In this document: positions 6,517 through 64,000 of the stretch, one piece after another | Position numbering within the stretch: the first letter of the stretch is position 1 | Layout: each line of letters begins with the position of its first letter | NCBI RefSeq assembly: GCF_036669915.1 | Contig: NC_089318.1 | Location: 22,900,725-22,964,724 of the forward strand | Reading direction: 5' to 3' | Origin: Pocillopora verrucosa | Taxonomy: Eukaryota > Cnidaria > Anthozoa > Scleractinia > Pocilloporidae | DNA length: 64,000 nt | The notes under the pieces: model-generated | Database searches by the model: none | The model's input: only the letters and a program-made list of their open reading frames with translations | Told to the model about the DNA's origin: nothing | Program-made: the position numbers and the translations under genes

Positions 6517-6914
6517 GTCAAGCGAAACCAAATACATCAGGCTAATCAACCTGTTATGACAGACAGCTATTTTGGTGAGCTACCTGCCTTCAGAATCAAC
6601 CGCATTCTTTAGTAAGAAACTATTAAATTGAGAGGCTGCAAACAGATCTAACACATTTGAATTAAATCCTCAGATTAAAGCTGTCTCATTCATTTCGCTA
6701 GAGCAATCGGGAAAAGTTCGTAATGGAAAACTCAGGATAACTTTTGGCAAACTTCTCTGTGGCCTTGACTCTGGCTATAGTTTTAACAGTTGGCACTTTC
6801 CTATGAAAAATATTGAGTATTGAATCAAGCGGCTGCAAACGGATCTAACAAAGCTAAATCAAATCCTTACGCTGTCTCATTCATTTCATTCGAACAATTG
6901 GGGAAAGGTTGAAA
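6517..6914. repeat. Diverged ~200-bp tandem duplication before the TPR-CHAT start
   Basis: Two related segments sit one after the other, about 6633-6831 and 6832 onward, each beginning GGCTGCAAACNGATCTAAC and containing GCTGTCTCATTCATTTC. The second leads into the start codon at 6915. The first contains the homologous ATG, followed a few codons later by TAA, so it looks like a decayed copy of the first coding segment. The same pair is found at 32,713-33,050. Confidence 0.55.
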
Positions 6915-9524
6915 ATGGACAACGTAGAAGAACTTATGGCAACATCCTCGATGGTTATTGGGTTAGTGGTTGCCACCTTCCTCCTGAACACTGGTCGTGG
7001 TTTACAAGCCATGATGTTAGGCGAAGAATGTTTGATCTTTCTAAAATCTAACGAGCTGAAAAAGAAGACCTGTTTCCAATTTACCATGGGAATCAACATG
7101 TTAATGTTCGACGCGGCTTGCATGGCTTCCAGTTACACATCTGCAGAAAGATATGCCAAGGAACTTCTTGATATGTTCCATGCCTCTGGTGACACAATTG
7201 AAGAAGGAAAAATAACTTTAATACTGGGAAAGATATATCATAGCCAAAATGAGTTTGAAAAGGCAAAACAATATTATCAGAAGGCAATTGATGTGACAGA
7301 ATGTACGGCTGACAAACAAACGAGGGAAAAATTTTACATTGCGATGGGAGATTTATCTTATTCGCGTAGTGAGTATCACAAAGCTAAGAAGTATTTAGAG
7401 AACGCACTGGCAATCATGGTGTCCTATGGTGACAGAATCAGGGAAGCTACCATTTACGGAAACGTAGGTACTGTCGTTCAGTCACTTGGGGAATACGACA
7501 AAGCTGAGAAATATTACAAGAAAGCACTTGAAATCAGGAAAAAAACTGGCAACAAAAAAGGAGAAGCAGCTGACTACGGAAACTTAGGAACATTGTTTCA
7601 CTCACTGGGTGAATACGGAAAGGCAAAAGAATACACCGAGAAAGCACTTGCAATCAGAAGGGAAATTGGCGACAGAGAGGGAGAAGCAACTGACTACGGA
7701 AACTTAGGAACATTGTTTCACTCACTGGGTGAATACGGAAAGGCTAAAGAATACACCAAGAAAGCACTTGCAATCAGAAAGGAAATTGGCGACAGAAAGG
7801 GAAAAGCAGCTAACTACGGAAACTCAGGAACATTGTTTCACTCACTGGGTGAATACCAAAAGGCTAAGGAATACACCGAGAAAGCACTTGCAATCACAAA
7901 GGAAATTGACAACAGAAAGGGAGAAGCAGCTGACTACGGAAACTTGGGAACATTGTTTCACTCACTGGGGGAATACGGAAAGGCTAAGGAATACACCGAG
8001 AAAGCACTTGCAGTCAGAAAGGAAATTGGCGACAGAAAGGGAGAAGCAGCTGACTACGGAAACTTAGGAACATTGTTTCACTCACTGAGTGAATACCAAA
8101 AGGCTAAAGAATACACCGAGAAAGTACTTGCAATCAGAAAGGAAATTGGCGACAGAAAGGGAGAAGCAGCTGACTACGGAAACTTAGGAACATTGTTTCA
8201 CTCACTGGGTGAATACCAAAAGGCTAAAGAATACACCGAGAAAGCACTTGCAATCAGAAAGGAAATTGGCGACAGAAAGGGAGAAGCAGCTGACTACGGA
8301 AACATAGGAACATTGTTTCACTCACTGGGTGAATACAGAAAGGCTAAAGAATACACCGAGAAAGCACTTGCAATGAGAAAGGAAATTGGCGACAGAAATG
8401 GAGAAGCAGCTGACTATGGAAACTTGGGAACATTGTTTCATTCACTGGGTGAAAATGAAAAGGCTAAAGAATACACCGAGAAAGCACTTGCAATCAGAAA
8501 GGAAATTGGCAACAGAGAGGGAGAAGCAGCTGACTACGGAAACTTAGGAACATTGTTTCACTCACTGGGTGAATACGGAAAGGCTAAAGAATACACCGAG
8601 AAAGCGCTTGCAATTAGAAAGAAAATTGGCGACAGAAAGGGAGAAGCAACTGGCTACGGAAAATTAGGAACATTGTTTCACTCACTGGGTAAATACGGAA
8701 AGGCTAAAGAATACACCGAGAAAGCCCTTGCAATCAGAAAGGAAATTGGCGACAGAAAGGGAGAAGCAGCTGACTACGGATACTTAGGAACATTGTTTCA
8801 CTCACTGGGTGAATACCAAAAGGCTAAAGAATACACCGAGAAAGCACTTGCAGTCAGAAAGGAAATTGGCGACAGAAAGGGAGAAGCAGCTGACTACGGA
8901 AACTTAGGAACATTGTTTCATTCACTGGGTGAATACAAAAAGGCTAAAGAATACACCGAGAAAGCACTTGCAATCAGAAAGGAAATTGGCGACAGAGAGG
9001 GAGAGGCAGCTGACTACGGAAACTTAGGAACATTGTTTCATTCACTGGGTGAATTCCAAAAGGCTAAAGAATACAACGAGAAAGCACTTGCAATCAGAAA
9101 AGAAATTGGCGACAGAAAGGGAGAAGCAGCTGACTACGGAAACTTAGGAACATTGTTTCAGTCACTGGGTGAATACCAAAAGGCTAAAGAATACACCGAG
9201 AAAGCGCTTGCAATTAGAAAGAAAATTGGCGACAGAAAGGGAGAAGCAGCTGACTACGGAAACTTAGGAACATTGTTTCATTCACTGGGTGAAAATGAAA
9301 AGGCCAAAGAATACACCGAGAAAGCACTTGCAATCACAAAGGAAATCGGCGACAGAAAGGGAGAAGCAGCTGGCTACGGAAACTTAGGAACATTGTTTCA
9401 GTCACTGGGTGAATACGGACATTACCAGCAATGCGAGTCATATTGCGTCTCAAATACCGTACGTCAATCAAAGATTACTTTCAAAATGGCTTCCCGAAGA
9501 TACAAAGAAATGTATGGGATCTGA
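6915..9524 (+). CDS. TPR-CHAT gene A, N-terminal TPR half (interrupted)
   Basis: A scaffold/sensor repeat domain of a TPR-CHAT (TTC28-like) protein. The ATG at 6915 follows a TTG and is the first ATG in frame. Residues ~13-24 are hydrophobic. From about 7215 come 40-residue TPR units of the LGN/GPSM2 type (consensus [20 protein letters not shown]...[17 protein letters not shown]). There are 18 full units and a partial 19th, each exactly 120 bp. At 9420 the frame enters an inserted transposon and ends after 34 foreign codons at 9522-9524. The TPR/CHAT frame resumes at 10409. Read literally, this gives a TPR-only protein of about 869 residues; splicing out the insert is possible but not evident. 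Confidence 0.85.
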   Translation: MDNVEELMATSSMVIGLVVATFLLNTGRGLQAMMLGEECLIFLKSNELKKKTCFQFTMGINMLMFDAACMASSYTSAERYAKELLDMFHASGDTIEEGKITLILGKIYHSQNEFEKAKQYYQKAIDVTECTADKQTREKFYIAMGDLSYSRSEYHKAKKYLENALAIMVSYGDRIREATIYGNVGTVVQSLGEYDKAEKYYKKALEIRKKTGNKKGEAADYGNLGTLFHSLGEYGKAKEYTEKALAIRREIGDREGEATDYGNLGTLFHSLGEYGKAKEYTKKALAIRKEIGDRKGKAANYGNSGTLFHSLGEYQKAKEYTEKALAITKEIDNRKGEAADYGNLGTLFHSLGEYGKAKEYTEKALAVRKEIGDRKGEAADYGNLGTLFHSLSEYQKAKEYTEKVLAIRKEIGDRKGEAADYGNLGTLFHSLGEYQKAKEYTEKALAIRKEIGDRKGEAADYGNIGTLFHSLGEYRKAKEYTEKALAMRKEIGDRNGEAADYGNLGTLFHSLGENEKAKEYTEKALAIRKEIGNREGEAADYGNLGTLFHSLGEYGKAKEYTEKALAIRKKIGDRKGEATGYGKLGTLFHSLGKYGKAKEYTEKALAIRKEIGDRKGEAADYGYLGTLFHSLGEYQKAKEYTEKALAVRKEIGDRKGEAADYGNLGTLFHSLGEYKKAKEYTEKALAIRKEIGDREGEAADYGNLGTLFHSLGEFQKAKEYNEKALAIRKEIGDRKGEAADYGNLGTLFQSLGEYQKAKEYTEKALAIRKKIGDRKGEAADYGNLGTLFHSLGENEKAKEYTEKALAITKEIGDRKGEAAGYGNLGTLFQSLGEYGHYQQCESYCVSNTVRQSKITFKMASRRYKEMYGI

Positions 9525-10407
9525 AATAAAATCTTATTTTTTGGCAGTTTAAATAAATTAAATTCTACGTGCCGACCTCTCGTTGATAAATAATATGCAA
9601 CTGCACTACGAAGCGAAAGTTTTTTCACCGTTTCGTTTATTCGTCGAGCCGCGGAATAGAGGTAAAATAACAAAGATCTTCGGTTGTACTTCCTTTATAG
9701 TTTCATCCAAATACCTTCACTTACCTTCACTTCCATGCTTTGAGCTGTCCGTGTGTTTCATGCTTTCATCGGTGCCGACCCCTCAAAATTTTCTTCAGTT
9801 TACGATCTTTCAAATACGTTAAATAAAGCCTTCCATGATAAAATAGGAGGCCGCAAATCAATCTTGAAAATAGGGCTTTTTCACTATTAGACGTAACCTT
9901 TACCTGAGCTCGCGAATGTCCTGTAGGACGCGAAGAACGACCACTTTCCATCGTTTTCTTCGTGAAAAAAGTCGCCATATTTACTTCAGCTTAGCAGCCT
10001 AGCATTTCCACGCTTTTTACCGCTGTTTTAACAATCTGCAGACTCCTACAAGCGCCAAATCGCGCCAATTATAAAAAACAAAATTTCATCCGAAGTAAAA
10101 TATAGCTGCAGGAACATAAAAGGGTCAATACACATACCTCGTTCTTCAATCTTCGCCGGCTGATAAGTCTCTCCACAAAATAAACTTTAGATCCGCTTTT
10201 AAATTTTCTCCTTCCTTTCAAATGAACTTCTAAATCCACTGTAGAAAGAACATTTAGTGCTTTATAATCAACTCGATTCCTCCGCGGAAATCTACTTCGC
10301 TCCATGTTTACATGAAATCTGACGCCATAGCGCATGAACAGTAGAACCTGAAGAAACTACTGACCTCGCGGACCGCGGGAGTAAAATGTCTCGGATTGCT
10401 GGTAATG
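9420..10407. mobile_element. 988-bp inverted-repeat DNA transposon splitting TPR-CHAT gene A
   Basis: The left end is CATTACCAGCAATGCGAG and the right end inverts to CATTACCAGCAATCCGAG, with similarity continuing a few bases inward. The left end sits exactly between two codons of a TPR unit, and TPR sequence resumes at 10408. No clear target-site duplication can be read. There is no transposase-like frame, so it is a non-autonomous element of unassigned superfamily. 989 extra bases separate the two TPR codons, which also shifts the frame. Confidence 0.8.
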
Positions 10408-10408
10408 A

Positions 10409-12133
10409 AAGGCTAAAGAATACACCGAGAAAGCACTTGCAATCAAAAAGGAAATTGGCGACAGAGAGGGAGAAGCAACTGACTACGGAAACTTAGGAAC
10501 ATTATTTCACTCACTGGGTGAATACCAAAAGGCTAAAGAATACACCGAGAAAGCACTTGCAATCAGAAAGGAAATTGGCGACAGAAAGGGAGAAGCAGTT
10601 GACTACGCAAACTTAGGAGCATTGTTTCATTCACTTGGTGAACTTGACAAAGCTGAAGTACATTTTTGCAAGGCTATCTCAATTTGCAAAGTCATTGGTC
10701 ATAATATGAGTGAGTTTAAAACTCTTTGCGGTCTAACGGCTTTGAAGTTGGCTCAATCTGATATCCAAGAAGCGTTTTCGTATCTCTTTCAATCTGTTGA
10801 AAAATTCGAAAAATTGCGACACTTCGTAAAAGACAATGAGTACTTCAAAATATCTTTGATGGAGAAGCATGGTGCCTCTCCCTATAAGACGCTCAGTAAA
10901 TTGGCTTTTATTACCGAGAATCCTGAACTTTCTCTTTACGTTGAGGAACTCAGACGGGCAAGAGCCCTTGCGGAGTTAATGATGGCTCAATATTCTGCTA
11001 AAGAGACCCAGTTTTCAGGTGATCCACAATCACTGTTTAGCATCCATGATATCATTAAAAGAGACGCAAATTGTACTTTTGTTTACCTTTCGGTTAATGA
11101 TGAAGATGTATGGATTTGGATTCTCAAAACAAGCGGACAGATTCTTCTCCGGCGTAAAAAGGGAATGGATTCAGACAGTTTTGGAAATGCCGGGTCAGTC
11201 CCCAACCCGAAAGTGCTTTTTTCGGAGAGTTTCCGCCACTTTGCCATCCTACCCACGGAGAATTACGAAGATCGCTCTTTAAATGACGAACCTGTTCTAG
11301 AGTTATCTGGTGATGTTAGGCGATCGCCTCTATCCCACGATGAAACTGAGGATATGAAAACACGTCTGCGTTTGTTCTACGAGCTAATTATCGCTCCTGT
11401 GGCCGATTTATTGAAAAAACCTGAAATTATCATTGTCCCTGACAGTTGTATGTACCAAGTGCCATTTGCAGCCTTACTTAGTCCTTCAAACTATCACTGT
11501 AAGACTGGGGCACTGATAGTGGGTGAACCTGAGGTGAGAGAAGTGATTTACAGGGGAGAACAAATTGTCCTCGTTCCATTACCGAAAGCAAGAGAAGAAG
11601 CCGAGATGATTGGAAATATGCTTGGCGTCGTCCCATTGTTAGGAAGAAGTGCAACAAAGGATGCGGTTCTGGAACAGATGAAGTCAGTTGCGTTGATACA
11701 TTTTGCGGCTCACGGAAATCCCGATCGAGGAGAAATAGCACTTTCCCCCGTCAGTACTACTAACAGTACTCCACAGGAAGAAGAATACCTTTTGACGATG
11801 GCTGATGTATCAAAAGTTCAACTTCGAGCTAAACTGGTAGTTCTAAGCTGTTGTCACAGTGGGTGCGGAGAGATCAAAGTCGAAGGAGTAATTGGAATCG
11901 CTCGAGCGTTCTTAGGATCCGGTGCTCGGTCGGTGTTGGTGGCGCGGTGGGCCTTGGACGACGAATCAACGGAGCAGTTAATGAAATGTTTCTACGAACA
12001 CTTGTTCCGTGGTGAGAGTGCCAGTGAATCTCTTCACGAGGTCAGAAAGTGGATGAGAGGTAACTCCAAGTATTCTCAAGTGAAGAAATGGGCTACGTTC
12101 ATGCTGATTGGAGATAACGTCAAATTGAGGTAG
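10409..12133 (+). CDS. TPR-CHAT gene A, last TPRs and CHAT protease domain
   Basis: The frame is open from the end of the transposon at 10409, with no ATG needed if it is an exon remnant. It encodes the rest of the split TPR, two more TPR units (the last ending near 10,710), a linker with [12 protein letters not shown], and a CHAT domain (caspase/separase-clan cysteine protease). The His lies in HFAAHG (codon 11711-11713) and the Cys in LSCCHSG (second Cys, 11852-11854). Compared with unit B, 27 residues are missing between VPFAALL and SPSNY (near 11,475), an in-frame loss within the fold. The frame ends TAG at 12131-12133, but GAG|GTAGGT there is also a possible splice donor. Confidence 0.8.
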   Translation, partial: KAKEYTEKALAIKKEIGDREGEATDYGNLGTLFHSLGEYQKAKEYTEKALAIRKEIGDRKGEAVDYANLGALFHSLGELDKAEVHFCKAISICKVIGHNMSEFKTLCGLTALKLAQSDIQEAFSYLFQSVEKFEKLRHFVKDNEYFKISLMEKHGASPYKTLSKLAFITENPELSLYVEELRRARALAELMMAQYSAKETQFSGDPQSLFSIHDIIKRDANCTFVYLSVNDEDVWIWILKTSGQILLRRKKGMDSDSFGNAGSVPNPKVLFSESFRHFAILPTENYEDRSLNDEPVLELSGDVRRSPLSHDETEDMKTRLRLFYELIIAPVADLLKKPEIIIVPDSCMYQVPFAALLSPSNYHCKTGALIVGEPEVREVIYRGEQIVLVPLPKAREEAEMIGNMLGVVPLLGRSATKDAVLEQMKSVALIHFAAHGNPDRGEIALSPVSTTNSTPQEEEYLLTMADVSKVQLRAKLVVLSCCHSGCGEIKVEGVIGIARAFLGSGARSVLVARWALDDESTEQLMKCFYEHLFRGESASESLHEVRKWMRGNSKYSQVKKWATFMLIGDNVKLR

Positions 12134-31393: not shown

Positions 31394-32333
31394 AATAATT
31401 TAATAATAATAATCATTTATTCATTTCTAGTGCGCATCTTTACATGACAATGATCAGATGCGCATTCCTAAGTAAATATTATGTAAAAGAGAATTGAAGA
31501 AACTAAAGTATATATTATGTAGAAAGAGAAAATGCTAATAATATGCTAATAAAATCTCTATTAAGTATGTGCAAGACTAAAAGATAGGTCTTAAGATGAG
31601 TTTTAAAACTAGTAACACATGTGAATGAGCGAAGCTCACTAGGCAGAGAGTTCCACAATGACGGCGCCGCAACGATGAATGCCCGATCACCTAGCGTAGC
31701 CTTAGATTTCACTGATGGCATAGCTAGGAGTAGAGTATTAGAACCCCTGAGATTATAGCGTGATGCCTTTATACTAATTAAGGACCGTAGATACTGAGGG
31801 GCAAGGCCATGTAACGCCTTAAACGTGAGGAGAAGTACCTCGAAGTTGATGCGTGCCCTGATAGGCAACCAGTGCAAATTGCGCATTATTGGTGTTATAT
31901 GACAAAACCTTGGCGCATTACATACCAGCCTAGCGGAAGCATTCAGAACTTTCTGAATTTTTCGCAAGCTGGCTGTTTGGCAGCCCATACAGTAGGCTAT
32001 TGCAATAATCGATGCAGGACGTTATGAAAGCATGGACTAACGTCTCGGCCGTATCCTCTTGAGATTAATACTTGCGTATGCGTCGAATATTATACAAGTG
32101 GTAAAATGCAACAGAATAAAGCTTAGTGATAGGGCCAGACATAGTGAGCTGTGAATCGATTCATGATCCAAGGTTCCTAAGTACTGGAACAGGACTCACA
32201 TTAGCAGAGCCCACCTTGATATTATCAATATTAACTTTGGTTAGCTGTTGCTTTGTGCCTAGTATAAGAAACTCTGTTTTGTCGTCATTTAGTATTAGAA
32301 TGTCCGATATCATCTAGCTCCTGACATAACTTG
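31394..32333 (-). mobile_element. Non-LTR retrotransposon 3' fragment (unit B only)
   Basis: Inserted between GTAACTT and AACTTGT where A and C are continuous. The minus frame 31515-31988 carries a LINE RT C-terminus: SARLVCNAPRF, LHWLPIRARI, FKALHGLAPQYL, SLWNSLPSELR. Farther upstream (to about 32,330) an NDDKTEFLILG-type segment and an interrupted frame are visible. The element ends in an ATT-rich tail at the plus-strand left edge. 5' truncated and frame-broken. Confidence 0.8.
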
Positions 32334-33098
32334 TCAATGAAACAACCTGCATTTTTTTCGAAGGGAAAGTCGTGCCTCAGCATCGCCTTTATCTGGATTT
32401 CAATCACGAGGCCAAGAAATTTGAGACAGTTCTTGTAAGTAACTTTGTTGTTGTGAAACTGTTAGTTTATCATGTCAACAGCTTCTTTTGATTTTAACCA
32501 AATACCAGAATTTATCGGCTGATTTTGATCCCTAATTCCTCGCTAATTACAAAAACTTTCTAAAACGTGAATAATTATGATATATAAGACTGAGTAAGTC
32601 AAGCGAAACCGAATACATCAGGCTAATAACCTATGAGGACTGAGGGAAATTTTGGCGAGCTACCTGTCTTCAGAATGAACCGCATTTCTTTAGTAAGAAA
32701 CTATTAAATCGAGTGGCTGCAAACGGATCTAACACAGTTGAATTAAATCCTCAGATTAAAGTTGTGTCATTCATTTCACTCGAACAATCCGAAAAAGTTC
32801 GTGATGGAAAACTCAGGATAACTTATGGAAAACTTCTCTGTGGCCTGGACTTTGGCTATACTTTTAACAGTTGGCACTTTCCTGTGAAAAGTAATGAATA
32901 TTGAATCAAGCGGCTGCAAACGGATCTAACAAAGTTAAATTAAATCCTTACGCTGTCTCATTCATTTCATTCGAACTATCGGCAAAAGTTTGAAAATGGA
33001 CAACGTAGAAGAACTTAAAGCAACCTTCTCGATGGTTATAGGGCGACGAGCTTGAATCGAAGACCCGTTTTCAACTTATCATAACAATCTATACGCTA
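32334..33098. other. 5' flank of TPR-CHAT gene B, with duplicated leader
   Basis: Contains the two-copy ~200-bp leader (32,703-33,050) seen before gene A. The ATG homologous to gene A's start is present at 32,996, but its frame stops at a TGA after 19 codons. This is because about 86 bp present in A (6961-7050) are reduced to 4 bp here. Confidence 0.55.
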
Positions 33099-36000
33099 AT
33101 GTTCAAGGCGGCTTGCATGGCGTCCAATTACACATCAGCAGAAAGATATGCTAAGGAACTTCCTGATATGTACCATGCCTCTGGTGACACATTCGGAAAT
33201 GGAAAAATGACTTTAATGATGGGAAAATTGTGTCAGAGCCGAAATGAATTTGAAAAGGCAATACAATATTATCAGGAGGCAGTTGATATGGCGAAGTGTA
33301 CTGCTGACAAAAAAACGGAGGCAGATTGTTACTTTGCAATAGGAAATTTATCTTATTCGCGTAGCGAATATCACAAAGCTAAGAACTATTTCGAAAAAGC
33401 GCTGGCGATCACGGTGTCATATGGTGACAGAATTAGAGAAGCTATCATTTACGGAAACCAAGGAACAGTCGCTCAGTCGCTAGGTGAATACGACAAAGCT
33501 GAGAAATATTACAAGAAAGCACTTGAAATCAGAAAAGAGATTGGCGACAGAGAAGGAGAAGCAGCTGACTACGGAAACTTAAGAGCATTGTTTCATTCAC
33601 TGTGTGAATACGAAAAGGCTAAAGAATACACCGAGAAAGCACTTGTAATCAGAAAGGAAATTGGCCACAGGGAGGGAGAGGCAGCTGACTACGGAAACTT
33701 AGGAGCATTGTTTCATTCACTGGGCGAATACGAAAAGGCTAAAGAATACATCGAGAAAGCACTTGCAATCAGAAAGGAAATTGGCGACAGGGAAGGAGAG
33801 GCAGCTGACTACGGAAACTTAGGAGCATTGTTTCATTCACTGGGCGAATACGAAAAGGCTAAAGAATACATCGAGAAAGCACTTGCAATCAGAAAGGAAA
33901 TTGGCGACAGGGAAGGAGAGGCAGCTGACTACGGAAACTTAGGAGCATTGTTTTACTCACTGGGTGAATACGCAAAGGCTAAAGAATACATCGAGAAAGC
34001 ACTTGCAGTCAGAAAGGAAATTGGCGACAGAGAAGGAGAAGCAGCTGCCTGCAGAAACTTAGCCTCATTGTTTCATTCATTCGGTCAATACGAAAAGGCT
34101 AAAGAATACACCGAGAATGCACTTCTCATCAGCAAAGAGATTGGCGACAGAAAGGGAGAAGCAACTGGTTACAGAAACTTGGGAACATTCTTTCATTCGC
34201 TACGTGAATACGAAGAGGCTAAAGAATACACCGAGCAAGCACTTGCCATCACGATGGAAATTGGCGACAGAGAGGGAGAAGCAGCTGACTACGGGAAATT
34301 AGGAACATTGTTTCGCTCACTGGGTGAATACCAAAAGGCTAAAGAATACATTGAGAAAGCACTTGCAATCAGAAAGGAAATTGGCGACAGAAAGGGAGAA
34401 GCAGCTGACTATGCACTTTTAGGGACATTGTTTTATTCACTGGGTGAATACAAAAAGGCTAAAGAATGCACCAAGAAAGCACTTGCAATCAGAAAGGAAA
34501 TTGGCGACAGAAAGGGAGAAGCAGCTGACTACGGAAACTTAGGATCATTGTTTCATTTATTGAATGAATACGAAGAGGCTAAAGAATACACCGAGAAAGC
34601 ACTTGCCATCAGCAAAGAGATTGGCGACAGAGAGGGAGAGGCAACTGGTTATGGAAAGTTGGGATCATTGTTTCATTCACTGCGTGAATACGAAAAGGCT
34701 AAAGAAAACACCGAGAAAGCTCTTGCAATCAGAAAGGGAATTGGCGACAGAGAGGGAGAGGCAACTGCCTACGGAAACTTAGGATCACTGTTTCATTCAT
34801 TTGATCAATATGAAAAGGCTAAAGAATACATCGAGAAAGCACTTGCAATCAGAAAGGAAATTGGTGACAGAGAGGGAGAAGCAACTGGTTATGGACAGTT
34901 GGGATCATTGTTTCATTCACAGTGTGAATACGAAAAGGCTAAAGAATACACCGAGAAAGAACTTCCAATAAGAAAGGAAATTGGCGACAGAGATGGAGAA
35001 GCAGCTGCCTACGGAAACTTAGGATCATTGTTTCGTTTATTAGATCAATACGAAAAGGCTAAAGAATACACCAAGAAAGCACTTGCAATTAGAAAGGAAA
35101 TCGGCGACAGAAAGGGAGAAGCAACTGTTTATAGAGAATTGGGATCATTGTTTTATTCACTGTGTGAGTACCAAAAGGCTAAAGAATATGCCGAGAAAGC
35201 ACTTGCCATCAGCAAAGAGATTGGCGACAGAGACGGAGAAGGAACTGACTATGAAAACCTGGGATCATTATTTCAGTCACTATGTGAATATGAAAAGGCT
35301 AAAGAATACACGGAGACAGCTCTTGCAATCAGAAAGGAAATTGGCGACAGAGAGGGAGAAGCAGCTGGTTATGGAAAGTTAGGATCATTGTTTCATTCAC
35401 TGTGTGAATACGAAAATGCTAAAGAATACACTGAGAAAGCACTTGCCATCAGCAAACAGATTGGCGACAGAGAGGGAGAAGCAACTGGCTATGTAAACTT
35501 GGGATTATTGTTTCAAGCACTATGTGAATACGAAAAGGCTAAAGAATACACGGAGACAGCTCTTGCAATCAGAAAGGAAATTGGCGACAGAGAGGGAGTA
35601 GCAACCGGTTATGGAAAGTTGGGATCATTGTTTCATTCACTGTGTGAATACGAAAAGGCTAAAGAATACACGGTGACAGCACTTACAATCAGAAAGGAAA
35701 TTGGCGACAGAAAAGGAGAAGCAACTGACTACGGAAACTTAGGAACATTATTTCATTCAATGGGTCAATACGAAAAGGCTAAATCGTACACCGAGAGAGC
35801 ACTCGCAATAAGAATGGAAATTGGCGACAGAAAGGGAGAAGCAGCTGACTACGGAAAGTTAGGAACATTGTTTCAGTCACTGGGCGAATGCGAAAAGGCT
35901 AAAGAATACACCGAGAAAGCACTTGCAATCAGAAAGGAAATTGGCGACAAAAAGGGAGAAGCAGCTGACTACGGAAACTTAGGATCATTGTTTGAGTCAC

Positions 36001-39000
36001 TGTGTGAATACCAAAAGGCTAAAGAATACACCGAGAAAGCTCTTGCAATTACAAAAGAAATTGGCGACAGAGAGGGAGAAGCAGCTGCCTACGGAAACTT
36101 AGGACCATTGTTTCACTCACTGGGTGAATACGAAAAGGCTAAAGAACACACGGAGAGAGCACTTGCAATCAGAATGAAAATTGGCGACAGCAAGGGAGAA
36201 GCAGCTGACTACGGAAACTTAGGAACATTATTTCATTCACTGGGTGAATACGAAAAGGCTAAAGAATACACCGAGAAAGCACTTGCAATCAAAATGAAAA
36301 TTGGCGACAGAAAGGGAGAAGCAGCTGCCTACGGAAACCTAGGATCATTGTTTCATTCATTGGGTCAATACGATAAGGCTGAAGAATTTACTGAGAAATC
36401 AGTTGCAATCACAAAGGAAATTGGCGACGGAAAGGGAGAAGTAACTGGTTATATAAGGTTAGGATTATTTTTTCATTCACTGTTTAAATATGAAAAGGCT
36501 GAAGAATACACAGAGAAAGCACTTGCCATCAGCAAACAGATTGGCGACGGAGCGGGAGAAGCAACTGCCTACGGAAACTTGGGATCATTGTTTCAGGCAC
36601 TATGTGAATACGAAAAGGCTAAAGAATACACGGAGAAAGCTCTTGCAATCACAAAGAAAATTGGCGACAGAGACGGAGAAGCAGCTAACTACGGAAAATT
36701 AGGAACATTGTTTCATTCACTGGGTGAATACGAAAAGGCTAAAGAATACACGAAGAAAGCACTTTCGATCAGAAAGGAAATTGGCGACAGAAAGGGAGAA
36801 GCAGCTGACTACGGAAACTTAGGAACATTGTTTCATTCACTGGGTAAATACAAAAAAGCTAAAGAATACACCGAGAAAGCACTTACAATCAGAAAGGAAA
36901 TTGGCGACAGAAAGGGAGAAGCAACTGGTTACGGAAACTTAGGATCATTGTCTCACTCATTGGGTGAATACGAAAAGGCTAAAGAATACACCGAGAAAGC
37001 ACTTGCCATCAGCAAACAGATTGGCGACTGGGAGGGAGAAGCAACTGGTTTCAGAAGATTGGGATCATTGTTTCATTCACTGTGTGAATACGAAAAGGCT
37101 AAAGAATACACGGAGAAAGCTCTTGCACTCAATAAGAAAATTGGCGACAGAAAGGAAGAAGCAGCTGACTACGGAAACTTAGCATCATTGTTTCAGTCAC
37201 TGGGTGAATACGAAAAGGCTAAAGAATACACCGAGAAAGCTCTTGCAATCAGAAAGGAAATTGGCGACAGAAAGGGAAAAGCAGCTGACTACGGAAACTT
37301 AGGAACATTGTTTCATTCACTGGGAAAATACAAAAAAGCTAGAGAATTCACCGAGAAAGCACTTACAATCAGAAAGGAAATTGGCGACAGAAAGGGAGAA
37401 GCAACTGGTTACGGAAACTTAGGATCATTGTCTCACTCATTGGGTGAATACGAAAAGGCTAAGGAATACACCGAGAAAGCACTTGCAATCAGAAAGGAAA
37501 TTGGCGACAGAAAGGGAGAAGCAGCTGACTACGGAAACTTAGGAACATTGTTTCATTCACTGGGTAAATACAAAAAAGCTAAAGAATACACCGAGAAAGC
37601 ACTTACAATCCGAAAGGAAATTGGCGACAGAAAGGGAGAAGCAACTGGTTATGGAAACTTAGGATCATTGTCTCACTCATTGGGTGAATACGAAAAGGCT
37701 AAAGAATACACCGAGAAAGCACTTGCAATCAGAAAGAAAATTGGCGACAGAAAGGGAGAAGCAACTGGTTTCAGAAGCTTGGGATCATTGTTTCATTCAC
37801 TGTGCGAATATGAAAAGGCTAAAGAATACATGGAGAAAGCTCTTGCACTTAATAAGAAAATTGGCGACAGAAAGGAAGAAGCAGCTGACTACGGAAACTT
37901 AGCATCGTTGTTTCAGTCACTGGGTGAATACCAAAAGGCTAAAGAATACACCGAGAAAGCTCTTGCAATCAGAAAGGAGATTGGCGACAGGGAGGGAGTA
38001 GCAGCTGATTATGAAAACTTAGGAACATTGTTTCATTCACTGGGTGAATACGAAAGGGCTAAAGAATACACCGAGGAAGCACTTACAATCAGAATGGAAA
38101 TTGGTGACAGAAAGGGAGAAGCAGCTGACTACGGAAACTTAGCATCACTGTTTCAGTCACTGAGTGAATACGAAAAGGCTAAAGAATACACCGAGAAAGC
38201 ACTTGCAATCAGAAAGAAAATTGGCGACAGAGAGGGAGAAGCAGCTGATTATGAAAACTTAGGAACATTGTGTCATTCACTGTGTGAATACGAAAAGGCT
38301 AAAGAATACACCGAGAAAGCAATTGCAATCAGAATGGAAATTGGTGACAGAAAGGGAGAAGCAGCTGACTATGGAAACTTAGGGACATTGTTTCACTCAC
38401 TGGGTAAATACGAAAAGGCTAAAGAATACACTGAGAAAGCACTTGGGATCAGAAAGGAAATTGGTGACAGAGAGGGAGAAGCAGCTGACTACGAAAACTT
38501 AGGATCATTGTTTCATACATTGGGTCAATACAAAAAGGCTAAAGAATACACTGAGAAAGCTCTTTCAATCAGAAAGAAAATTGGCGACAGAAAGGGAGAA
38601 GCAGCTGATTATGGAACCTTAGGAAAAGTTTTTCATTCCCTGGGTGAATATCAAAAGGCTAAAGAATACACCGAGAAAGCACTTGCACTTAGAAAGGAAA
38701 TTGGTGACAAAAAGGGAGAAGCAGGTGCCTACGGAAACTTAGGATCACTGTTCCACTCACTGGGTGAATACGAAAAGGCTAAAGAATACACTGAGAGAGC
38801 ACTTGCAGTCAGAAAGGAAATTGGCGACAGAGAAGGAGAAGGAGCTGCCTACGGAAACTTAGGATCATTGTTTCATACATTGGGTCAATACGAAAAGGCT
38901 AAAGAATACACTGAGAAAGCTCTTTCAATCAGAAAGAAAATTGGCGACAGAAAGGGAGAAGCAGCTGATTATGGAACTTTAGGAAAAGTTTTTCATTCCC

Positions 39001-42000
39001 TGGGTGAATATGAAAAGGCTAAAGAATACACCGAGAAAGCACTTGCACTTAGAAAGGAAATTGGTGACAAAAAGGGAGAAGCAGGTGCCTACGGAAACTT
39101 AGGATCACTGTTTCACTCACTGGGTGAATACGAAACGGCTAAAGAATACACCGAAAAAGCACTTGCAATCAGAAAGGAAATTGGCGACAGAGAGGGAGAA
39201 GCAGCTGGTTATGGAAAGTTAGGATCATTCTTTTATTCACTGCGTGAATACGAAAAGGCTAAAGAATACACCGAGAAAGCACTTGCCATCAGCAAAGAAA
39301 ATGGCGACAGAGACGGAGAAGCAACTGGCTATGGAAACTTGGGATCATTGTTTCAGGCACTATGTGAATACAAAAAGGCTAAAGAATACACCGAGAAAGC
39401 ACTTGCAATTAAAATGGAAATTGGCGACAGAGAGGGAGAAGCAGCTGAATACGAAAACTTGGGAACATTGTTTCACTCACTGGGGGAATACAAAAAGGCT
39501 AAAGAATACACCGAGAAAGCACTTGCAATCAGAAAGGAAATTGGCGACAGAAAGGGAGAAGCAACTGTCTACGGAAACTTAGGATCATTGTTTCATTCCC
39601 TTGGTCAACACGAAAATGCTAAAGAATACACCGAGAAAGCACTTGCAATCAGAAAAGAAATTGGCGACAGAAAGGGAGAAGCAGCTGACTATGGAAACTT
39701 AGGGACATTGTTTCACTCACTAGTTGAACACAAAAAGAGTAAAGAATACACTGAGAAAGCACTTGCAATCAGAATGGAAATTGGCGACAGAAAGGGAGAG
39801 GCAGATGACTACGGAAGGTTAGGGACGTTGTTTTCCTCACTGGCTGAATACGAAAAGGCTAAAGAATACACCGCGAAAGCACTTGCAATCAGAAAGGAAA
39901 TTGGCGACAGAAAGGGAGAAGCAGATGACTACAGAAATTTAGGATCACTGCATCACTCACTGGGTGAATACGGAAAGGCGAAAGAATACACCGAGAAAGC
40001 ACTGGCAATTAGAAAGGAAATCGGCGACAGAAAAGGAGAAGCAGCTGACTACAGACACTTAGGATCACTGTCTCACTCACTGGATGAATACAAAAAGGCT
40101 AAAGAATGCACCAAGAAAGCACTTGCAATCAGAAAGGAAATTGGCGACAGAGAGGGAGAAGCAGATGACTACAGAAATTTAGGATCACTGCATCACTCAC
40201 TGGGTGAATACGGAAAGGCGAAAGAATACACCGAGAAAGCACTAGCAATCAGAAAGGAAATTGGCGACAGAAAGGGAGAAGCAGCTGCCTACGGAAATTT
40301 AGGGTCATTGTTTTCCTCACTGGGTGAATACGAAAAGGCTAAAGAATGCACCAAGAAAGCACTTGCAATCAGAAAGGAAATTGGCGACAGAAAGGGAGAA
40401 GCTACTGAATATGGAAACTTAGGATCATTGGTTCTTAAATTGGGTGAATACAAAAAGGCTAAAAAATACACCGAGAAGGCACTTGCCATCAGCAAAGAGA
40501 TTGGCGACAGACACGGAGAAGGAACTGGGTACGGAAACTTGGGATTATTGTTTCAGGCACTGTGTGAATACGAAAAGGCAAGAGAATACACGGAGAAGGC
40601 TCTTGCAATCAGAAAGAAAATTGGCGACAGAAAGGGAGAAGCAGATGATTATGGAAACTTAGGAACATTGTTTCATTCACTGGGTGAATACATTAAGGCT
40701 AAAGAATACACCGAGAAAGCACTTGCAATCAGAAAGGAAATTGGCGACAGAAAGGGAGAAGCAGATGATTATGGAAACTTAGGAACATTGTTTCATTCAC
40801 TGGGTGAATACATAAAGGCTAAAGAATACACCGAGAAAGCACTTGCAATCAGAAAGGAAATTGGCGACAGAAAGGGAGAAGCAGATGACTACGGAAAGTT
40901 AGAATCACTATATCACTCACTGGGTGAATACGAAAAGGCTGAAGAATACACCGAGAAAGCACTTGCAATCAGAAAGGAAATTGGCGACAGAAAGGGAGAA
41001 GCAGCTGCCTACGGAAACTTAGGATCATTGTTTCATACATTGGGTCAATACGAAAAGGCTAAAGAATACACCGAGAAAGCAGTTGCCATCACAAAGGAAA
41101 TTGGTGACAGAAAGGGTGAAGGAACTGGCTACGCAAACTTAGGATTATCGTTTCATTCACTGTTTGAATACAAAGAGGCTAAAAAATACACCGAGAAAGC
41201 GCTTGCAATCAGAAAAGAAATTGGCGACAGAAAGGGAGAAGCAGGTGCGTACGGAAACTTAGGATTATTGTTTCAGTCACTGGGTGAATTCGAAAAGGCT
41301 GAAGAATACATTGAGAAAGCACTTCTAATCAGAAAGGAAATTGGTGACAGAAAGGGAGAGGCAGATGACTACGGAAATTTAGGATCATTGTTTTCCTCAT
41401 TGGGTGAATACGAAAAGGCTAAAGAATACACCGAGAAAGCACTTGCAATCAGAAAGGAAATTGGCGACAGAAAGGGAAAAGCAGCTGACTACGGAAACTT
41501 AGGATCATCGTTTTATTCACTGGGTGAATTTGAAAAGGCTAAAGAATACACTGAGAAAGCACTTCTAATCAGAAAGGAAATTGGTGATAAAAAGGGAGAA
41601 GCAGCTGACTACAGAAAGTTAGGGTCATTGTTCCAGTTACTGGGTGAATACGAAAAGGCTAAAGAGTACACCGAGAAAGCACTTGCAATCAGAAAGGAAA
41701 TTGGCGACAGAAAGGGAGAAGCAAGTGACTACGGAAACTTAAGAACATTGTTTCATTCCCTGGGTGAATACGAAAAGGCTAAAGAATACGCTGAGAAAGC
41801 ACTTGCAATCAGAAAGGAAATTGGCGACAGAAAGGGAGAAGCAGCTGCTTACGGAAACTTAGGGACATTGTTTCACTCACTAAATAAATACGAAAGGGCT
41901 AAAGAATACATGGAGAAGGCTCTTGCAATCAGAAAGGAAATTGGCGACAGAGAGGGAGAAGCAGCTGACTACGGAAATCTTGCAGCATTGTTTCGCTCAC

Positions 42001-43700
42001 TGGATAAAAACGAAAAGGTTAAAGAATACACCGAGAAAGCACTTGCAATCAGAAAGGAAATTGGCGACAGAAAGGGAGAAGCAGCTGAGCACGTGAACTT
42101 AGGAATATCGTTTAATTCACTGCGTGAACTTGATAAAGCTGAAAAACATTTTAGCGAGGCTATCTCAATTTCCAAAGTCATTGGACAAGATTTGATTGAG
42201 TCTTTAGGTCTTAGCGGTCTAATGGCTGTGAAGTTGGCTCAGTCTAATTTCAAAGAAGCGTCTTCAAATTTTTTTCAATCTATTAGGAAATTAGAAAAAT
42301 TGCGAAACTTCGCAAAAGACAGTGATTACTTGAAAATATCCATGATGGAGAAGCATGGTACCTTTCATTATGAGTTTCTCAGTAAATTGCTTTCTGCTAC
42401 CGAGAGTCCTGAACTTTCTCTTTACTTTGAAGAACTCAGACGGGCAAGAGCTCTAGCGGAATTGATGACGGCTCAATATTCTGCTAAACAGACCCAGTTT
42501 TCAGGTGATCCACAATCATTGTTTAGCATCCATGATATCATTAAAAGAGAAGCAAATTGTACTTTTGTTTACCTTTCGGTTGATGATAGAGATGTGCGGA
42601 TTTGGATTCTCAAAACAAGCGGACAGATTCTTTTCCGGCGTGAAAAGGGAATGGATTCAGACAGTTTTGGAAATGCCGGGTCAGTCCCCAACCCGAAAGT
42701 GCTTTTTTCAGAGAGTTTCCGCCACTTTGCCATCCTACCCACAAAGAATTACGAAGATCGCTCTTTAAATGACGAACCTGATCTAAAGTTATCTGGCGAT
42801 GTTTGGCGATCGCCTCTATCCCACGATGAAACTGAGGATACGAAAACACGTCTGCGTTTGTTCTACAAGCTAATTATCGCTCCTGTGGCCGATTTATTGA
42901 AAGAACCTGAAATTATCATTGTCCCTGACAGCTGTATGTACCAAGTGCCATTTGCAGCCTTACTTGACGAAGGAGGAAGATATTTGTCTGACAAATTCAG
43001 GATCCGCATCGTTCCTTCTTTGACGGTCCTTAAAGTCATTCAGGATAGTCCTTCAAACTATCACAGTAACACTGGGGCACTGATAGTGGGTGAGCCTGAA
43101 GTGAGAGAAGTGATTTACAAGGGAAAGCAAATGATCCTTGATCCATTACCAGGTGCAAGAAAAGAAGCTGAAATGATTGGAAAAATGCTTGGCGTCCTCC
43201 CACTGTTAGGGAAAGATGCAACAAAGGAGGCAGTTCTTGAACAGATGAAGTCAGTTGCGTTGATACATTTTGCTGCTCACGGAAATCATGATAGAGGAGA
43301 AATAGCACTTTCCCCTGTCAGTACCACTAACAGTACTCCACAAGAAGAAGAATACCTTTTGACGATGGCTGATGTATCAAAAGTTCAACTTCGAGCTAAA
43401 CTGGTAGTTCTAAGCTGTTGTCATAGTGGGCGCGGAGACATTAAAGTCGAAGGAGTAATTGGAATCGCTCGAGCGTTCTTAGGATCCGGTGCTCGGTCGG
43501 TGTTAGTTGCGCGGTGGGCCTTGGACGACGAATCAACGGAGCAGTTCATGAAATGTTTTTACGAACACTTGTTCCGTGGTGAGAGTGCCAGTGAATCTCT
43601 TCACGAGGTCAGAAAGTGGATGAGAGGTAACCCCAAGTATTCTGATGTGATGAAATGGGCTCCGTTCATGCTGATTGGAGATAATGTAACATTGAGGTAA
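33099..43700 (+). CDS. Giant TPR-CHAT protein B (3,533 codons, ~75 TPRs)
   Basis: Repeat-sensor plus protease-like domain of the TTC28-like TPR-CHAT family. The first usable ATG is 33099; the paralog's N-terminal ~60 residues are lost. Residues ~40-3040 are about 75 units of exactly 40 residues (LGN-type TPR; consensus [20 protein letters not shown]). The 72 units beginning at 33570 keep the 120-bp period without a single indel. Then come a linker ([12 protein letters not shown], ~3,110) and a full CHAT domain, with [13 protein letters not shown], the [19 protein letters not shown] segment missing in A, His3394 in HFAAHG, and Cys3441 in LSCCHSG. The His-Cys dyad implies peptidase potential. 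The frame ends TAA at 43698, overlapping a strong GAG|GTAAGT donor, so a spliced C-terminus is likely. Size near 400 kDa if translated. Confidence 0.9.
33211..42190 (+). repeat. 120-bp coding tandem array, 75 units, with higher-order repeats
   Basis: Each 120-bp unit encodes one TPR. Blocks larger than one unit recur: 720-bp offset (about 36,840-37,200 against 37,560-37,920), 360-bp offset (38,520-38,760 against 38,880-39,120), 240-bp offset (39,900 against 40,140) and adjacent near-identical units (40,620 and 40,740). This is the pattern expected from repeated unequal exchange or conversion. Confidence 0.9.
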
Positions 43701-44378
43701 GTTTTAAGGAAAAGGGGAAAGATTTGTATTGAAAAAACTGCAAAGGAGATCACACTCAGAATGGGAATCTACTGAGGCCTAAATCTACTGTTTATGACAT
43801 GTTAGAAGGAACCCAGATTTAAATATAAAATCACCCATTTTGTAGCAGGTCAGGGAGACACTCGGGTTTTGGATGCGCCTGTTCATTGATATCATCTTAG
43901 AGTGTACAGGGAGATATTGTAGCCCATTGTCTCAAATATTACGATTTGGACATGAAAGTCGCCTTAAAGATTCACACGCCCCCCCCCCCTCCCCCCTCAT
44001 TTATTTCATGTTATGGAGTAAAGAAAGTATATAAGCTGGTTACGGTAAAGGAAGGATTCGTGTTGCATCTCATATAGTTCCCAGATGTATTTTTACTATT
44101 GTTAGAAAGAGGAAGAGACAAATGGAAGAGTATCTTAAATGACGGAAGGAAATAAGTTACTGATGGACGTAGAGGGTCTTAATTCCAAAGCGAGCTGCCA
44201 CGAGTAAATTCTATTTAATTCTGCGTCAAATTTCTTTGCCAAAGGCCTCTCAGTATCTGAAGTTCACAGCGACTAAACCTGTTATAACCGCAGAAATTCT
44301 TGGAAGAAATATATTGAATTGACCCAACAATAACTTTACCGACGAATCAATTCACGATTTTACAACTCCTTTGCTAAT
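43698..44378. other. Probable last intron of TPR-CHAT gene B, left part
   Basis: Begins with GTAAGT at 43697. Contains C-rich tracts near 43,979-43,998. Aligns with unit A 12,134-12,840. No other feature seen. Confidence 0.45.
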
Positions 44379-44500
44379 GGTGAAGAATATATGAAAGTCA
44401 TATATTTGAACTGCGGATAAAGACGTTAATGAAAGTGATCCTCGCAGTAATGTGCACTACTTAGGCAGTAGTGAAAATAAGGCCTGAAAAAAAAAATTCA

Positions 44501-44572: not shown

Positions 44573-44750
44573 AACTGGGAGCTGGTCATGAAGTTGGTTC
44601 TAAATAAACCCGTGAAGTGATGAATAAATGGTAAAGAATATATGAAAGTCATATATTTGAACTGCGGATAAAGACGTTAATGAAAGTGATCCTCGCAGTA
44701 ATGTGCACAACTTAGGCAGTAGTGAAAATAAGGCCTGAAAAAAAAATTCA

Positions 44751-61799: not shown

Positions 61800-62770
61800 A
61801 AGCTACAGTAAAATACACAATAAAAAGGAAAGGCCTGTAAGAGTTTTTTTCTTTGTGTCTTTGGAAACCACAGTGACATTTCGTTTTAACGATTTTCTTG
61901 TGATCTTGATGTGGGAATACTACTGCAGAGCACACAGATGGGGAAATATAAGGATCGAAATCTGTTAATGTATTACAGCCATACTAAAGGCACGAAGTCA
62001 TAGGGCCAGAAAGGCAATAATAGCATACTGGCAATTAGATGTTTCTCAATATCCTTGCTAATTTTAAGATCACTGCAAGCACGAGAACAATCCTTTTTGT
62101 AGTAAATAAACGGTAGAATACAAGGTTTAACAAGTTAAGTTAAACTTGTCAGTGTTTCATCCCACTCACTTACAAAACAGTTGTGATTTACTCACTGTCT
62201 GTCGAACCTTACTGCCTCCTTGTTTCCATGCAAACTATGTTCTGCTAGCAGGCCAGAGTGTTTGACCGAACTGAACTATTACAATACCTCGTTATTAACT
62301 TAAATCACTTGAATTAAACCGAATATCACTCCGAAAGGCATTTTAATATCTAGGTAATGAATCGAGTACCTTGAACTTATCACAAAAATGTCCAAAAATC
62401 TCCAAATGCCTCAGCTTTCTAAAGAGAGGAACACAAGACGTGGAGAACTAAGGCGAGTCAAGAAGAAATGGGGGGAGGGGATGGTAAGGTAAATCTATGT
62501 TTCTGATATCTGTGGCTAAGGTCGTTCGCTTCTCTCAAAGTGAGGTAAAAGCTAACTTTGAAAACTCGGAAGACAATAAGAAAAAAAATTGGGATGAATT
62601 CTCTTTCCAGTCGATAAATGTTCTATGATGACGTGACGATGAGCATTAGGGGGTGGTTGAAAAGCATCATAGTCACGTGACGCATTCTCCATCGGCAAAC
62701 TTCTTAACTTTCACTTTCGAAGGCGACGAACACAGTAAGTAATTTCTGTTCACTTTGTTCGATATTATAG
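61800..62770. other. Conserved noncoding block, unit C
   Basis: No gene seen; third copy of the block with TGACGTGA and GTCACGTGAC (near 62,630-62,680). Confidence 0.45.
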
Positions 62771-63283
62771 TACAGTCGAACCTCGATTATCCGGACTCAT
62801 CGGGACCTCGGTAAATAGTCCGGATAGTCGAGAGTCCGGATAATCGAAAATATGAATATTAATGAGATAGAAATGTGAAATAATTATCTGCTTATCTTTA
62901 ATCAATAGAACGGCTAGCTTTCGCTTCGTAGGCATGTTTTTGATTTGAGTTTACGATCGATCGCTCGTGTGTTTACACAGCTCACGCGGAAGGAACTAAT
63001 CAAACATGAAATTCCCTTGGCAACAAAACAATTGAGCCAACCATATATCAGCTGAACGCATCAGAATATTTCTTTGTCTCGTCGCACTTTCGAATTTTGA
63101 AAAGCGCACTGGATAATACGCTGTTTCAACAGTCTTTTGAAAGGATTATTGGGCTTTTTGCGACTTTGAGTTTTCAAGATCACAACTAATTAATATTCAT
63201 AGAAAAATTGGGACCAGAGAAGAAAGTCCGGATAATCGAATAGTCCGGATAATCGAGGTCCGGTTAATCGAGGTTGGACTGTA
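62771..63283. mobile_element. Pogo/Tigger-like MITE (unit C copy)
   Basis: The element spans 62773-63281, flanked by TA. It is slightly longer than the A and B copies because an extra TCCGGTTAATCGAGG-type segment duplicates part of the right terminus. Confidence 0.8.
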
Positions 63284-64000
63284 GTTTTACAGCTCGTGCG
63301 TTAGTTTTAATTCATTTATAATGACGTAAGCGTAATCTGTTAAAACTGTGAGCTATTTCCTTGATAAATCTCCAATATTCACGTTGTGGTCGCCTAAATA
63401 ATTACGGTGGAAGGAAAACAGTGGCATCAAGCGAATCAAAAGAAAAATTTCAGAGAATCTGATATTTACTTCTAAATACTTCTAAACTGCCTGACAATCT
63501 TGCTCTAAAATAATCACCCACATGAACTTTAATTCTCTGAATAAATCTGATGTCTCCAATTGGGCTGCTATCGAGTAGACCTCAAGCCGGAAGTAGCTTG
63601 CTCGCGTTTGCAGGTAAAATTTTGCTTGAGAAGCGTAGATATGCAGTCTGTACGTTGTTCCAGTTGTTCCTTGGAGTGCTCTATGCATAAAAATCCACAG
63701 ATAAAGATAAATGAAGGTCGATTTCCGACTTTTCATCTGGTCTAGCTTTCAATCTGCGAGTTCGTTTCCCGACCAGCGGCTGGCTGATAGAGGCTAAATA
63801 TGGATTTATGTCGGAGTTGGGCCTCGAGTTTCATGTTTATGTGTTTAAGACCTTGATTACGCTGAAGAATTTCTCTATCTTCGAATTCATCAGTGATAGG
63901 TGTTTTGTGTTGTAACTTGTTAATAAAACAACCTGCATTTTTTTCCGAAGGGAAAGTCGTGCCTTAGCATCGCTTTTATCTGGATTTCAATCACAAGGCC
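63284..64000. other. Unit C upstream region, cut by window end
   Basis: Counterpart of 4,329-5,050 and 30,748-31,390 (without the LINE), with an open minus frame at 63482-63736. The order in A and B predicts a third TPR-CHAT gene starting about 1-2 kb beyond the window. Confidence 0.4.

What the first reader, a model, noticed from the sequence alone, without database searches (positions are those of the whole stretch)
33211..42190. About 75 TPR units of exactly 120 bp with no indels
Seventy-two consecutive units keep phase over 8.6 kb, and the reading frame stays open for 3,533 codons. Large arrays usually collect indels, so this implies strong selection on frame and unit length or very recent homogenisation. 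I would place it among the longest TPR arrays I know of, though I cannot verify a ranking.
Basis: partly seen in the sequence, partly recalled or inferred. Interest (0 to 1): 0.75.

Follow-up and report, generated by a model that had tools for sequence, protein, structure and literature searches.

The report
Giant 75-repeat TPR-CHAT protein gene
This coral-like genome carries a gene for a giant protein with 75 copies of a 40-residue TPR (helix-pair) binding module joined to a caspase-like protease domain; it is an extreme member of a gene family already known to be hugely expanded in corals, and the residues that vary most from copy to copy tend to include those on the expected binding face.

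Summary
The array is real: 75 consecutive TPR units of exactly 40 codons (33204-42203), no indel, no stop, in an open frame at 33042-43700. This is a TPR-CHAT gene, a family reported as expanded to hundreds of genes in stony corals, with TPR stretches up to 3,832 aa (PMC12314368). Nine family loci, this one included, lie in tandem. Its frame is the longest of 135 CHAT matches scored in this genome, but its TPR stretch (3,000 aa) is below the published record.

Selection on frame and unit length is supported: about 60-70 indels expected without selection, none seen. Recent homogenisation is not the main cause. Pooled dN/dS between units is 0.48: 0.19 at structural-core positions but 2.2 at five ligand-groove positions, suggesting a diversified recognition surface, though only some sibling arrays agree.

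Caveat: this copy alone has a net 86-bp deletion just after the family's start codon (8 of 8 other loci found retain the segment), so it may be 5'-truncated.

The parts
33042..43700 (+). Open frame, stop to stop, 3,552 codons; first ATG at 33099 gives 3,533 aa
33204..42203 (+). 75 consecutive TPR units of exactly 40 codons, no indels; units 4-74 (33564-42083) are the homogeneous core
   Evidence: Pfam TPR_12, 49 stretches
42204..42563 (+). Variable linker between array and CHAT part; dN/dS 0.93-1.36 between this gene and six siblings (the stretch compared begins inside unit 75, near 42126)
42564..43697 (+). CHAT part as compared (dN/dS 0.29-0.39 with six siblings); the Pfam CHAT match itself is 42852-43682 (PF12770, E 2.3e-59)
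43278..43280 (+). Presumed catalytic His codon (HFAAHG motif)
   Evidence: invariant in A1 (6 sequences) and A3 (5 sequences, three bacterial); letters checked
43419..43421 (+). Presumed catalytic Cys codon (second Cys of LSCCHSG)
   Evidence: invariant in A1 and A3; letters checked
32996..33055 (+). Conserved family start codon; here it opens only a 19-codon frame
   Evidence: of seven start-like sites found six stay open for the 80 codons read, this one does not
33043..33046 (+). Junction of a net 86-bp deletion seen only in this copy
   Evidence: alignment, coordinates; 8 of 8 other loci found have 87-89 bases between the two halves
6858..9524 (+). Paralogue, 5' part: start region open, 40-codon TPR units
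9420..10407 (+). 988-bp insertion with terminal inverted repeats, splitting the paralogue inside a TPR unit
10409..12133 (+). Paralogue, 3' part: about two TPR units, linker, CHAT with a 27-residue deletion
61801..64000 (+). Start of a further tandem copy; its gene frame lies just past the window (64527-69377 in window numbering)

Best explanation
The gene encodes a giant TPR-CHAT protein. About 75 LGN-type 40-residue TPR hairpins should stack into one continuous superhelix (units shown by sequence; the fold of units 68-74 is predicted with block-mean pLDDT 79-95, the rest is inferred). A variable linker joins it to a CHAT caspase-like cysteine protease whose His-Cys pair is kept. I think it works as a sensor-protease: peptides or proteins bind along the concave groove, the linker passes the change on, and CHAT cuts a downstream protein, perhaps in cell death or immunity (inferred from Craspase and from fungal and bacterial CHAT-gasdermin systems; not shown here). 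Exact 40-codon spacing is kept because insertions or deletions would break the stacking register (inferred from zero indels against 60-70 expected). Arrays differ in length between tandem paralogues, so they grow and shrink by whole units, presumably by unequal exchange (inferred). This copy has lost the family's start; it may begin at 33099, lacking 63 N-terminal residues relative to sibling g64, or be a damaged copy.
For: Array and frame. CHAT. Dyad shared with two cyanobacterial and one Chloracidobacterium protein. Same architecture with 40-residue TPR period in cyanobacterial plasmid genes. TPR class LGN/Pins by sequence (last five units, 3sf4, 5e-42) and by predicted fold (3sf4, 9.8e-16); helix pairs every 40 residues. 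No indels or stops against the neutral expectation. Excess of synonymous changes over a null (281 of 759 against a mean of 207, sd 11). CHAT part dN/dS 0.29-0.39 in six pairs. Variation concentrated at groove positions 2, 5, 9, 12, 13; positions published in PMC1261162. The one neighbour (g-13) with a 39-residue unit also has a stop in its linker. Family context.
Against: The start region is broken only in this copy. No transcript, protein or ligand data. The CHAT part of the model is mostly below pLDDT 50, so its fold rests on sequence. The groove enrichment has p below 0.05 in 5 of 10 arrays and not in g-13, g7, g64, g87, g108; other positions (3, 15, 18, 38) vary as much. The groove dN/dS interval lies above 1 in only 2 of 8 arrays (g33, g-43); groove dS is low in this array (0.151 against 0.39 at core) and against all-codon dS the groove value is 1.18, above 1 in 4 of 8 arrays. 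With positions 33 and 34 added, C2_3122 is not significant (p 0.18). The only gasdermin match found is on another contig, C13, so no linkage supports that substrate. Pairwise CHAT dN/dS includes time before the deletion.
Confidence: 0.7

Rival explanations
1. A recently damaged or 5'-truncated family member. The 86-bp deletion removed the start; the long open frame is inherited and has not had time to decay.
For: The deletion is seen only in this copy: 8 of 8 other loci found have the segment; of seven start-like sites six stay open for the 80 codons read, this one closes after 19. This gene has the most private changes in the C-terminal part of the seven compared: 20 nonsynonymous, 10 synonymous. 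Two neighbours are interrupted: the gene at 6858-12133 by an insertion and g-13 by a stop in its linker.
Against: No stop or frame shift in the 10.6 kb after the deletion; CHAT dN/dS not raised over sibling pairs. An in-frame ATG follows at 33099, and a spliced 5' exon is possible.
Confidence: 0.3
2. Recent homogenisation alone: the array is uniform because it was copied very recently, with no selection on unit length.
For: Units 5 and 6 are identical and a few pairs at short lags, mostly among units 31-50, exceed 95%. 36 of 72 units have their nearest match in the same gene against 19% by share of the pool; blocks of 5 to 20 units at 96-98% occur in other arrays (g64, g108, the C2 giants).
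Against: In this array 70 of 71 core units are distinct, mean identity 0.849, flat with lag; pooled dS 0.28; 467-505 substitutions on the tree with zero indels; no block of three or more units at 95% or more within this array.
Confidence: 0.04
3. A structural or cytoskeletal scaffold, like human TTC28 in cytokinesis, with CHAT as a non-catalytic dock.
For: TTC28 has the same order of domains and is tied to cytokinesis (PMC12314368 passages); the closest solved TPRs are LGN/Pins, which I recall as spindle-orientation scaffolds.
Against: Hundreds of expanded, length-variable copies in corals and the clusters here look unlike a housekeeping scaffold; the His-Cys pair is kept.
Confidence: 0.2

Closest known systems
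TPR-CHAT domain-containing proteins of Acropora and other stony corals (PMC12314368)
   Same: Long N-terminal TPR stretch, one C-terminal CHAT, tandem clusters, great variation in TPR length
   Different: 3,000 aa of TPR here lies inside the published range (to 3,832 aa in A. digitifera); I saw no unit-level selection analysis in the passages I read
Human TTC28 / TPRBK
   Same: TPR then CHAT; called the putative human homologue in PMC12314368
   Different: 25 TPR units (title of a cited reference) against 75; I had no TTC28 sequence to align
Cyanobacterial TPR-CHAT plasmid proteins (Tolypothrix WP_063749852.1, Calothrix BAY66829.1)
   Same: 40-residue TPR period, linker, CHAT with the same motifs; 34.4% and 31.8% identity over 99% of a query of the last four units plus CHAT
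   Different: 893 and 1,146 aa, far shorter; bacterial
Craspase TPR-CHAT (Csx29)
   Same: TPRs and a linker regulating a CHAT protease with a His-Cys pair (PMC9729208 passages)
   Different: Part of a CRISPR complex; no such entry was among the hits of the two CHAT sequence searches of the PDB
LGN/Pins (GPSM2) TPR domain
   Same: Closest solved TPRs by sequence and by predicted fold
   Different: A short TPR domain and no CHAT, as I recall it; not claimed as the same protein family

Membership tests
Coral TPR-CHAT family | Multiple TPRs followed by a single C-terminal CHAT domain | tested here: met
   TPR_12 and one PF12770 stretch in one frame
Coral TPR-CHAT family | Tandem-duplicated, multi-copy | tested here: met
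   Eight loci with TPR arrays in 224 kb, seven with CHAT motifs in frame; a ninth by its start region and CHAT match; 135 CHAT matches scored of 503 candidates genome-wide
Coral TPR-CHAT family | Host is a stony coral | tested here: inconclusive
Inferred from family size only
CHAT peptidase (caspase-like) | His-Cys dyad in its two motifs | tested here: met
   Invariant in 5 of 5 sequences of A3, three of them bacterial, and 6 of 6 of A1
CHAT peptidase (caspase-like) | Proteolytic activity | not testable with these tools
   Needs protein
40-residue TPR (TPR_12, LGN-like) | Helix pairs repeating every 40 residues | tested here: met
   All spacings of 75 units are 40; helix pairs every 40 residues in units 68-75 of the model, confident for 68-74
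Craspase / Csx29 | Association with a type III-E CRISPR effector | not tested
   Eukaryote-like genome; not searched for
TTC28 orthologue | Orthology to human TTC28 | not testable with these tools
   No human sequence available; PMC9145168 passages place the canonical TTC28 of acroporids in a separate orthogroup from the expanded family

The most novel reading that the evidence does not exclude
The array is a modular recognition surface: the concave face of each TPR is diversified by selection unit by unit, while the core and the 40-residue register are held fixed, and whole units are gained, lost and exchanged among tandem genes. Coral TPR-CHAT genes would then be a large, germline-encoded, fast-evolving repertoire of sensor-proteases in which array length and groove residues set specificity.
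Probability: 0.3. Interest if true: 0.8.

Novelty: new member of a known kind. Interest (0 to 1): 0.42.

Why it matters
The expansion of TPR-CHAT genes in corals is known, but what they do is not well understood. The long arrays give tens of units per gene, enough to ask position by position what selection acts on. Here the core and the register are held fixed while five ligand-groove positions named in print change fastest in the giant array. If this holds across genes and species, it points to recognition of varied ligands by a caspase-like sensor, and it says which residues to test.

Tried and rejected
Recent homogenisation as the main cause of unit uniformity: rejected for this array. The longest-array claim: rejected against published Acropora lengths. 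A second '3,364-aa' giant on C13 proved mostly N (7,369 of 9,900 bases) and was dropped; of the other frames only the two C2 giants and the C7 cluster stretch were looked at base by base. The idea that genes in the cluster are always more diverged than their flanks was tested and dropped: flanks are a patchwork, about 1-12% divergent, with no constant direction. Gasdermin linkage: one match, on C13. Relatives in viral contigs: none confirmed of 41 pattern matches. Relatives by the search for related loci in genome contigs: one of 72 pattern matches. A structure of the CHAT part: too poor to use. The five apparent 'stops' come from scoring single changes against the consensus and are not real stops.

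Choices that affect counts: the flank calibration used six of the 14 blocks (third-copy, coding, overlapping and tRNA blocks left out); one search repeats it with all 14. The five groove positions were recalled, not read, when first used, after I had already seen the unit listing; so the p value for the giant array is optimistic, and the two C2 giants are the fairer test (p 0.015 and 0.035; neither significant within helix A alone). The core positions used are recalled. Unit 3 was in the 72-unit set and out of the 71-unit sets; units scoring below 22 of 40 were dropped (C2_3381 67 of 68 kept, C2_3122 61 of 63). g10 was left out; g7 and g87 also. The pooled value for copy-1 units includes a unit cut by the insertion and is not used.
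Full report
OBSERVATION. The open frame at 33042-43700 (first ATG 33099, 3,533 aa) is confirmed. It holds 75 units of exactly 40 codons from 33204 to 42203 with no other spacing. TRF gives 71.8 copies of a 120-bp unit with 0% indels.

CONTEXT. Much of the window is a tandem duplication. A second TPR-CHAT gene lies at 6858-12133, split by a 988-bp insertion with terminal inverted repeats and short of 27 residues in CHAT; a third copy begins at 61801. The window lies at G000:C7:22900725-22964724 of a 353-Mb genome in 52 contigs. In 224 kb around it (5,000 of these bases read N) there are eight loci with TPR arrays; by a fixed score their frames hold 43, 21, 39, 17 plus 2, 73, 24, 14 and 25 units (the window gene has 75 with the divergent end units counted). 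Seven of the eight have the CHAT motifs in frame and only 40-residue spacings. The eighth, g-13, has one unit of 39 residues, one longer gap between scored units, and a stop in its linker. A ninth locus is seen at C7:22800619 by its start region, with a CHAT match nearby. Genome-wide, 135 CHAT matches were scored of 503 candidates, none with a stop inside; the window's frame of 3,552 codons is the longest listed. The next (3,381, C2) and another (3,122, C2) are true giants with period 40; the listed 3,364-codon frame on C13 is mostly N. That the host is a stony coral is inferred from the size of this family.

SELECTION ON UNIT LENGTH. On the 71 core units the ML tree has 4.21 substitutions per site (about 505) and 467 parsimony steps. 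In six of the 14 duplicated blocks there are 76 indels to 547 substitutions; at that rate 65-70 indels would be expected and none is seen, P below 1e-28. With all 14 blocks (134 to 1,060) 59-64 would be expected, and with the lowest single block ratio (0.031) 15-16, P about 1e-7. Indels of length 3n: 5-6.5 expected, P(0) 0.002-0.008, so the 40-residue register itself, not only the frame, appears to be held. About 35-38 stops would be expected. Pooled dN/dS between units is 0.48, for adjacent units 0.46, for nearest pairs 0.52. Changes from the consensus are synonymous in 281 of 759 cases against a null mean of 207, sd 11.

NOT RECENTLY HOMOGENISED. Mean identity is 0.849, flat from lag 1 to 30; 70 of 71 core units are distinct. 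On average units are no closer within this gene (0.845) than to units of neighbours (0.845-0.875). Against this, 36 of 72 units have their nearest match within the gene (19% by share of the pool), so some local copying took place. Other arrays look younger: g64, g108 and the C2 giants contain blocks of 5 to 20 units at 96-98% identity. Units of the two C2 giants are 0.68-0.71 identical to the C7 cluster but 0.88-0.91 among themselves. I read this as concerted evolution by subfamily, with this array an old one.

WHERE UNITS VARY. PMC1261162 (passages) names positions 2, 5, 9, 12, 13, 33 and 34 as the most variable, concave-face positions of TPRs, with 2, 5, 6, 9, 12 and 13 used by HOP to bind peptides. 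My set 2, 5, 9, 12, 13 was recalled before I found that paper, but after I had seen the unit listing. Entropy at the five is 1.44 bits against 0.68 elsewhere (p 0.0016); with all seven 1.18 against 0.69 (p 0.017). Within helix A alone p is 0.03. The five-position test gives p below 0.05 in 5 of 10 arrays (g33, both C2 giants, g-68, g-43) and not in g-13, g7, g64, g87, g108; within helix A neither C2 giant is significant. With seven positions C2_3381 keeps p 0.014 and C2_3122 loses it (p 0.18). dN/dS by class in this array: groove 2.23 (bootstrap 1.69-3.08), core 0.19, other 0.45. In 7 of 8 arrays the groove ratio exceeds 'other'; C2_3381 is the exception (0.85 against 0.86). The groove interval lies above 1 in 2 of 8 (g33, g-43). 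The bootstrap ignores relatedness of units, and groove dS is low here; groove dN over all-codon dS is 1.18 in this array and above 1 in 4 of 8. I read this as suggestive.

DOMAINS AND FOLD. Units 68-75 are predicted as helix pairs every 40 residues (block-mean pLDDT 79-95 for units 68-74, falling to 41-76 in unit 75); the CHAT part is mostly below 50. The closest solved structures are LGN/Pins TPRs, by sequence with the last five units and by fold. The CHAT sequence finds only 8rot/8rw5 (E 0.0005; profile 0.014). The His and Cys of the CHAT motifs (43278, 43419) are invariant in 6 of 6 cluster sequences aligned (g-43 was not among them but shows both motifs) and in 5 of 5 of an alignment with three bacterial proteins. 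Cyanobacterial plasmid proteins have the same order and the same 40-residue period. Craspase TPR-CHAT gives the model of a linker passing a signal to the His-Cys pair (PMC9729208, passages); fungal CHAT proteases activate gasdermins and related pairs exist in bacteria (PMC12881547 and PMC10197012, passages).

THE BROKEN START. The cluster shares a start, MDNVEEL or close to it. Seven start-like sites were found; six stay open for the 80 codons read, and the one at 32996 before the giant array closes after 19, because of a net 86-bp deletion. A genome search with 301 bases around the junction found eight other loci, all on C7; in 8 of 8 the two halves lie 87-89 bases apart (one, at C7:22887828, matches only part of the first half). 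The product would have to start at 33099 or be spliced from elsewhere; relative to sibling g64, 63 residues would be lost. dN/dS of the CHAT part with six siblings is 0.29-0.39, like the 15 other pairs (0.24-0.51), while the linker gives 0.93-1.36; so CHAT shows no relaxation, but the comparison includes time before the deletion. Linker and CHAT disagree on kinship (g-43 is close to g64, g87 and g108 in the linker, to g10 in CHAT), a sign of exchange among genes.

KNOWN WORK. PMC12314368 (passages, and part 1 of 2 of section 15): 276 and 304 TPR-CHAT genes in two Acropora species, tandem clusters, TPR stretches of 31-3,347 and 63-3,832 aa, TTC28 as putative human homologue with the roles of its domains not well understood. 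PMC9145168 and PMC6208414 (passages) report related expansions. The gene is thus a new, extreme member of a known kind. A search for 'TPR-CHAT' with 'cnidaria' found one paper, PMC12314368, and one for 'tetratricopeptide', 'CHAT domain' and 'coral' found four. I saw no unit-level selection analysis in the passages read, but I did not read these papers in full.

CHANGE ON CHECKING.

Noticed in passing
15345-15863 and 47588-48094: Two copies of a frame that looks like a small basic protein with a hydrophobic N-terminal stretch and a KDEL end; near each, on the other strand, a further duplicated frame (14325-15155, 46422-47051).
   Followed up: no
44376-44875: Two tandem 250-bp units (98% identical), each with a tRNA-Thr (GGT) gene; ARAGORN finds no other tRNA in the window.
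   Followed up: no
9420-10407: A 988-bp insertion with terminal inverted repeats, perhaps a non-autonomous DNA transposon, inside a TPR unit of the paralogue.
   Followed up: partly
5536-6444: Minus-strand frame with a GIY-YIG match, perhaps a Penelope-like retroelement fragment (the element name is recalled).
   Followed up: no
1547-2296: Minus-strand alpha/beta hydrolase (Abhydrolase_3); a frame at 2251-2613 may be a further exon, but it matched no family.
   Followed up: no
L015 (C7:22890725-22900724), its second half: 5,000 N directly before the window: an assembly gap or a withheld stretch.
   Followed up: no
L001-L008 (C11 about 6.05-6.30 Mb, C1 7.36 Mb): Other TPR genes with a 42-residue period, again with very regular units.
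   Followed up: no
42126-42563: The linker between TPR and CHAT has dN/dS near or above 1 between this gene and its siblings, while the CHAT part does not.
   Followed up: partly
12134-32000 against 43701-64000: Downstream flanks of the two tandem copies are a patchwork from about 2% to 11% divergence, perhaps gene conversion tracts.
   Followed up: partly
window -13273 to -7955 (C7 about 22887452-22892770): Neighbour g-13 has one 39-residue TPR unit and a stop in its linker: the only irregular array of the eight, and an interrupted gene.
   Followed up: partly
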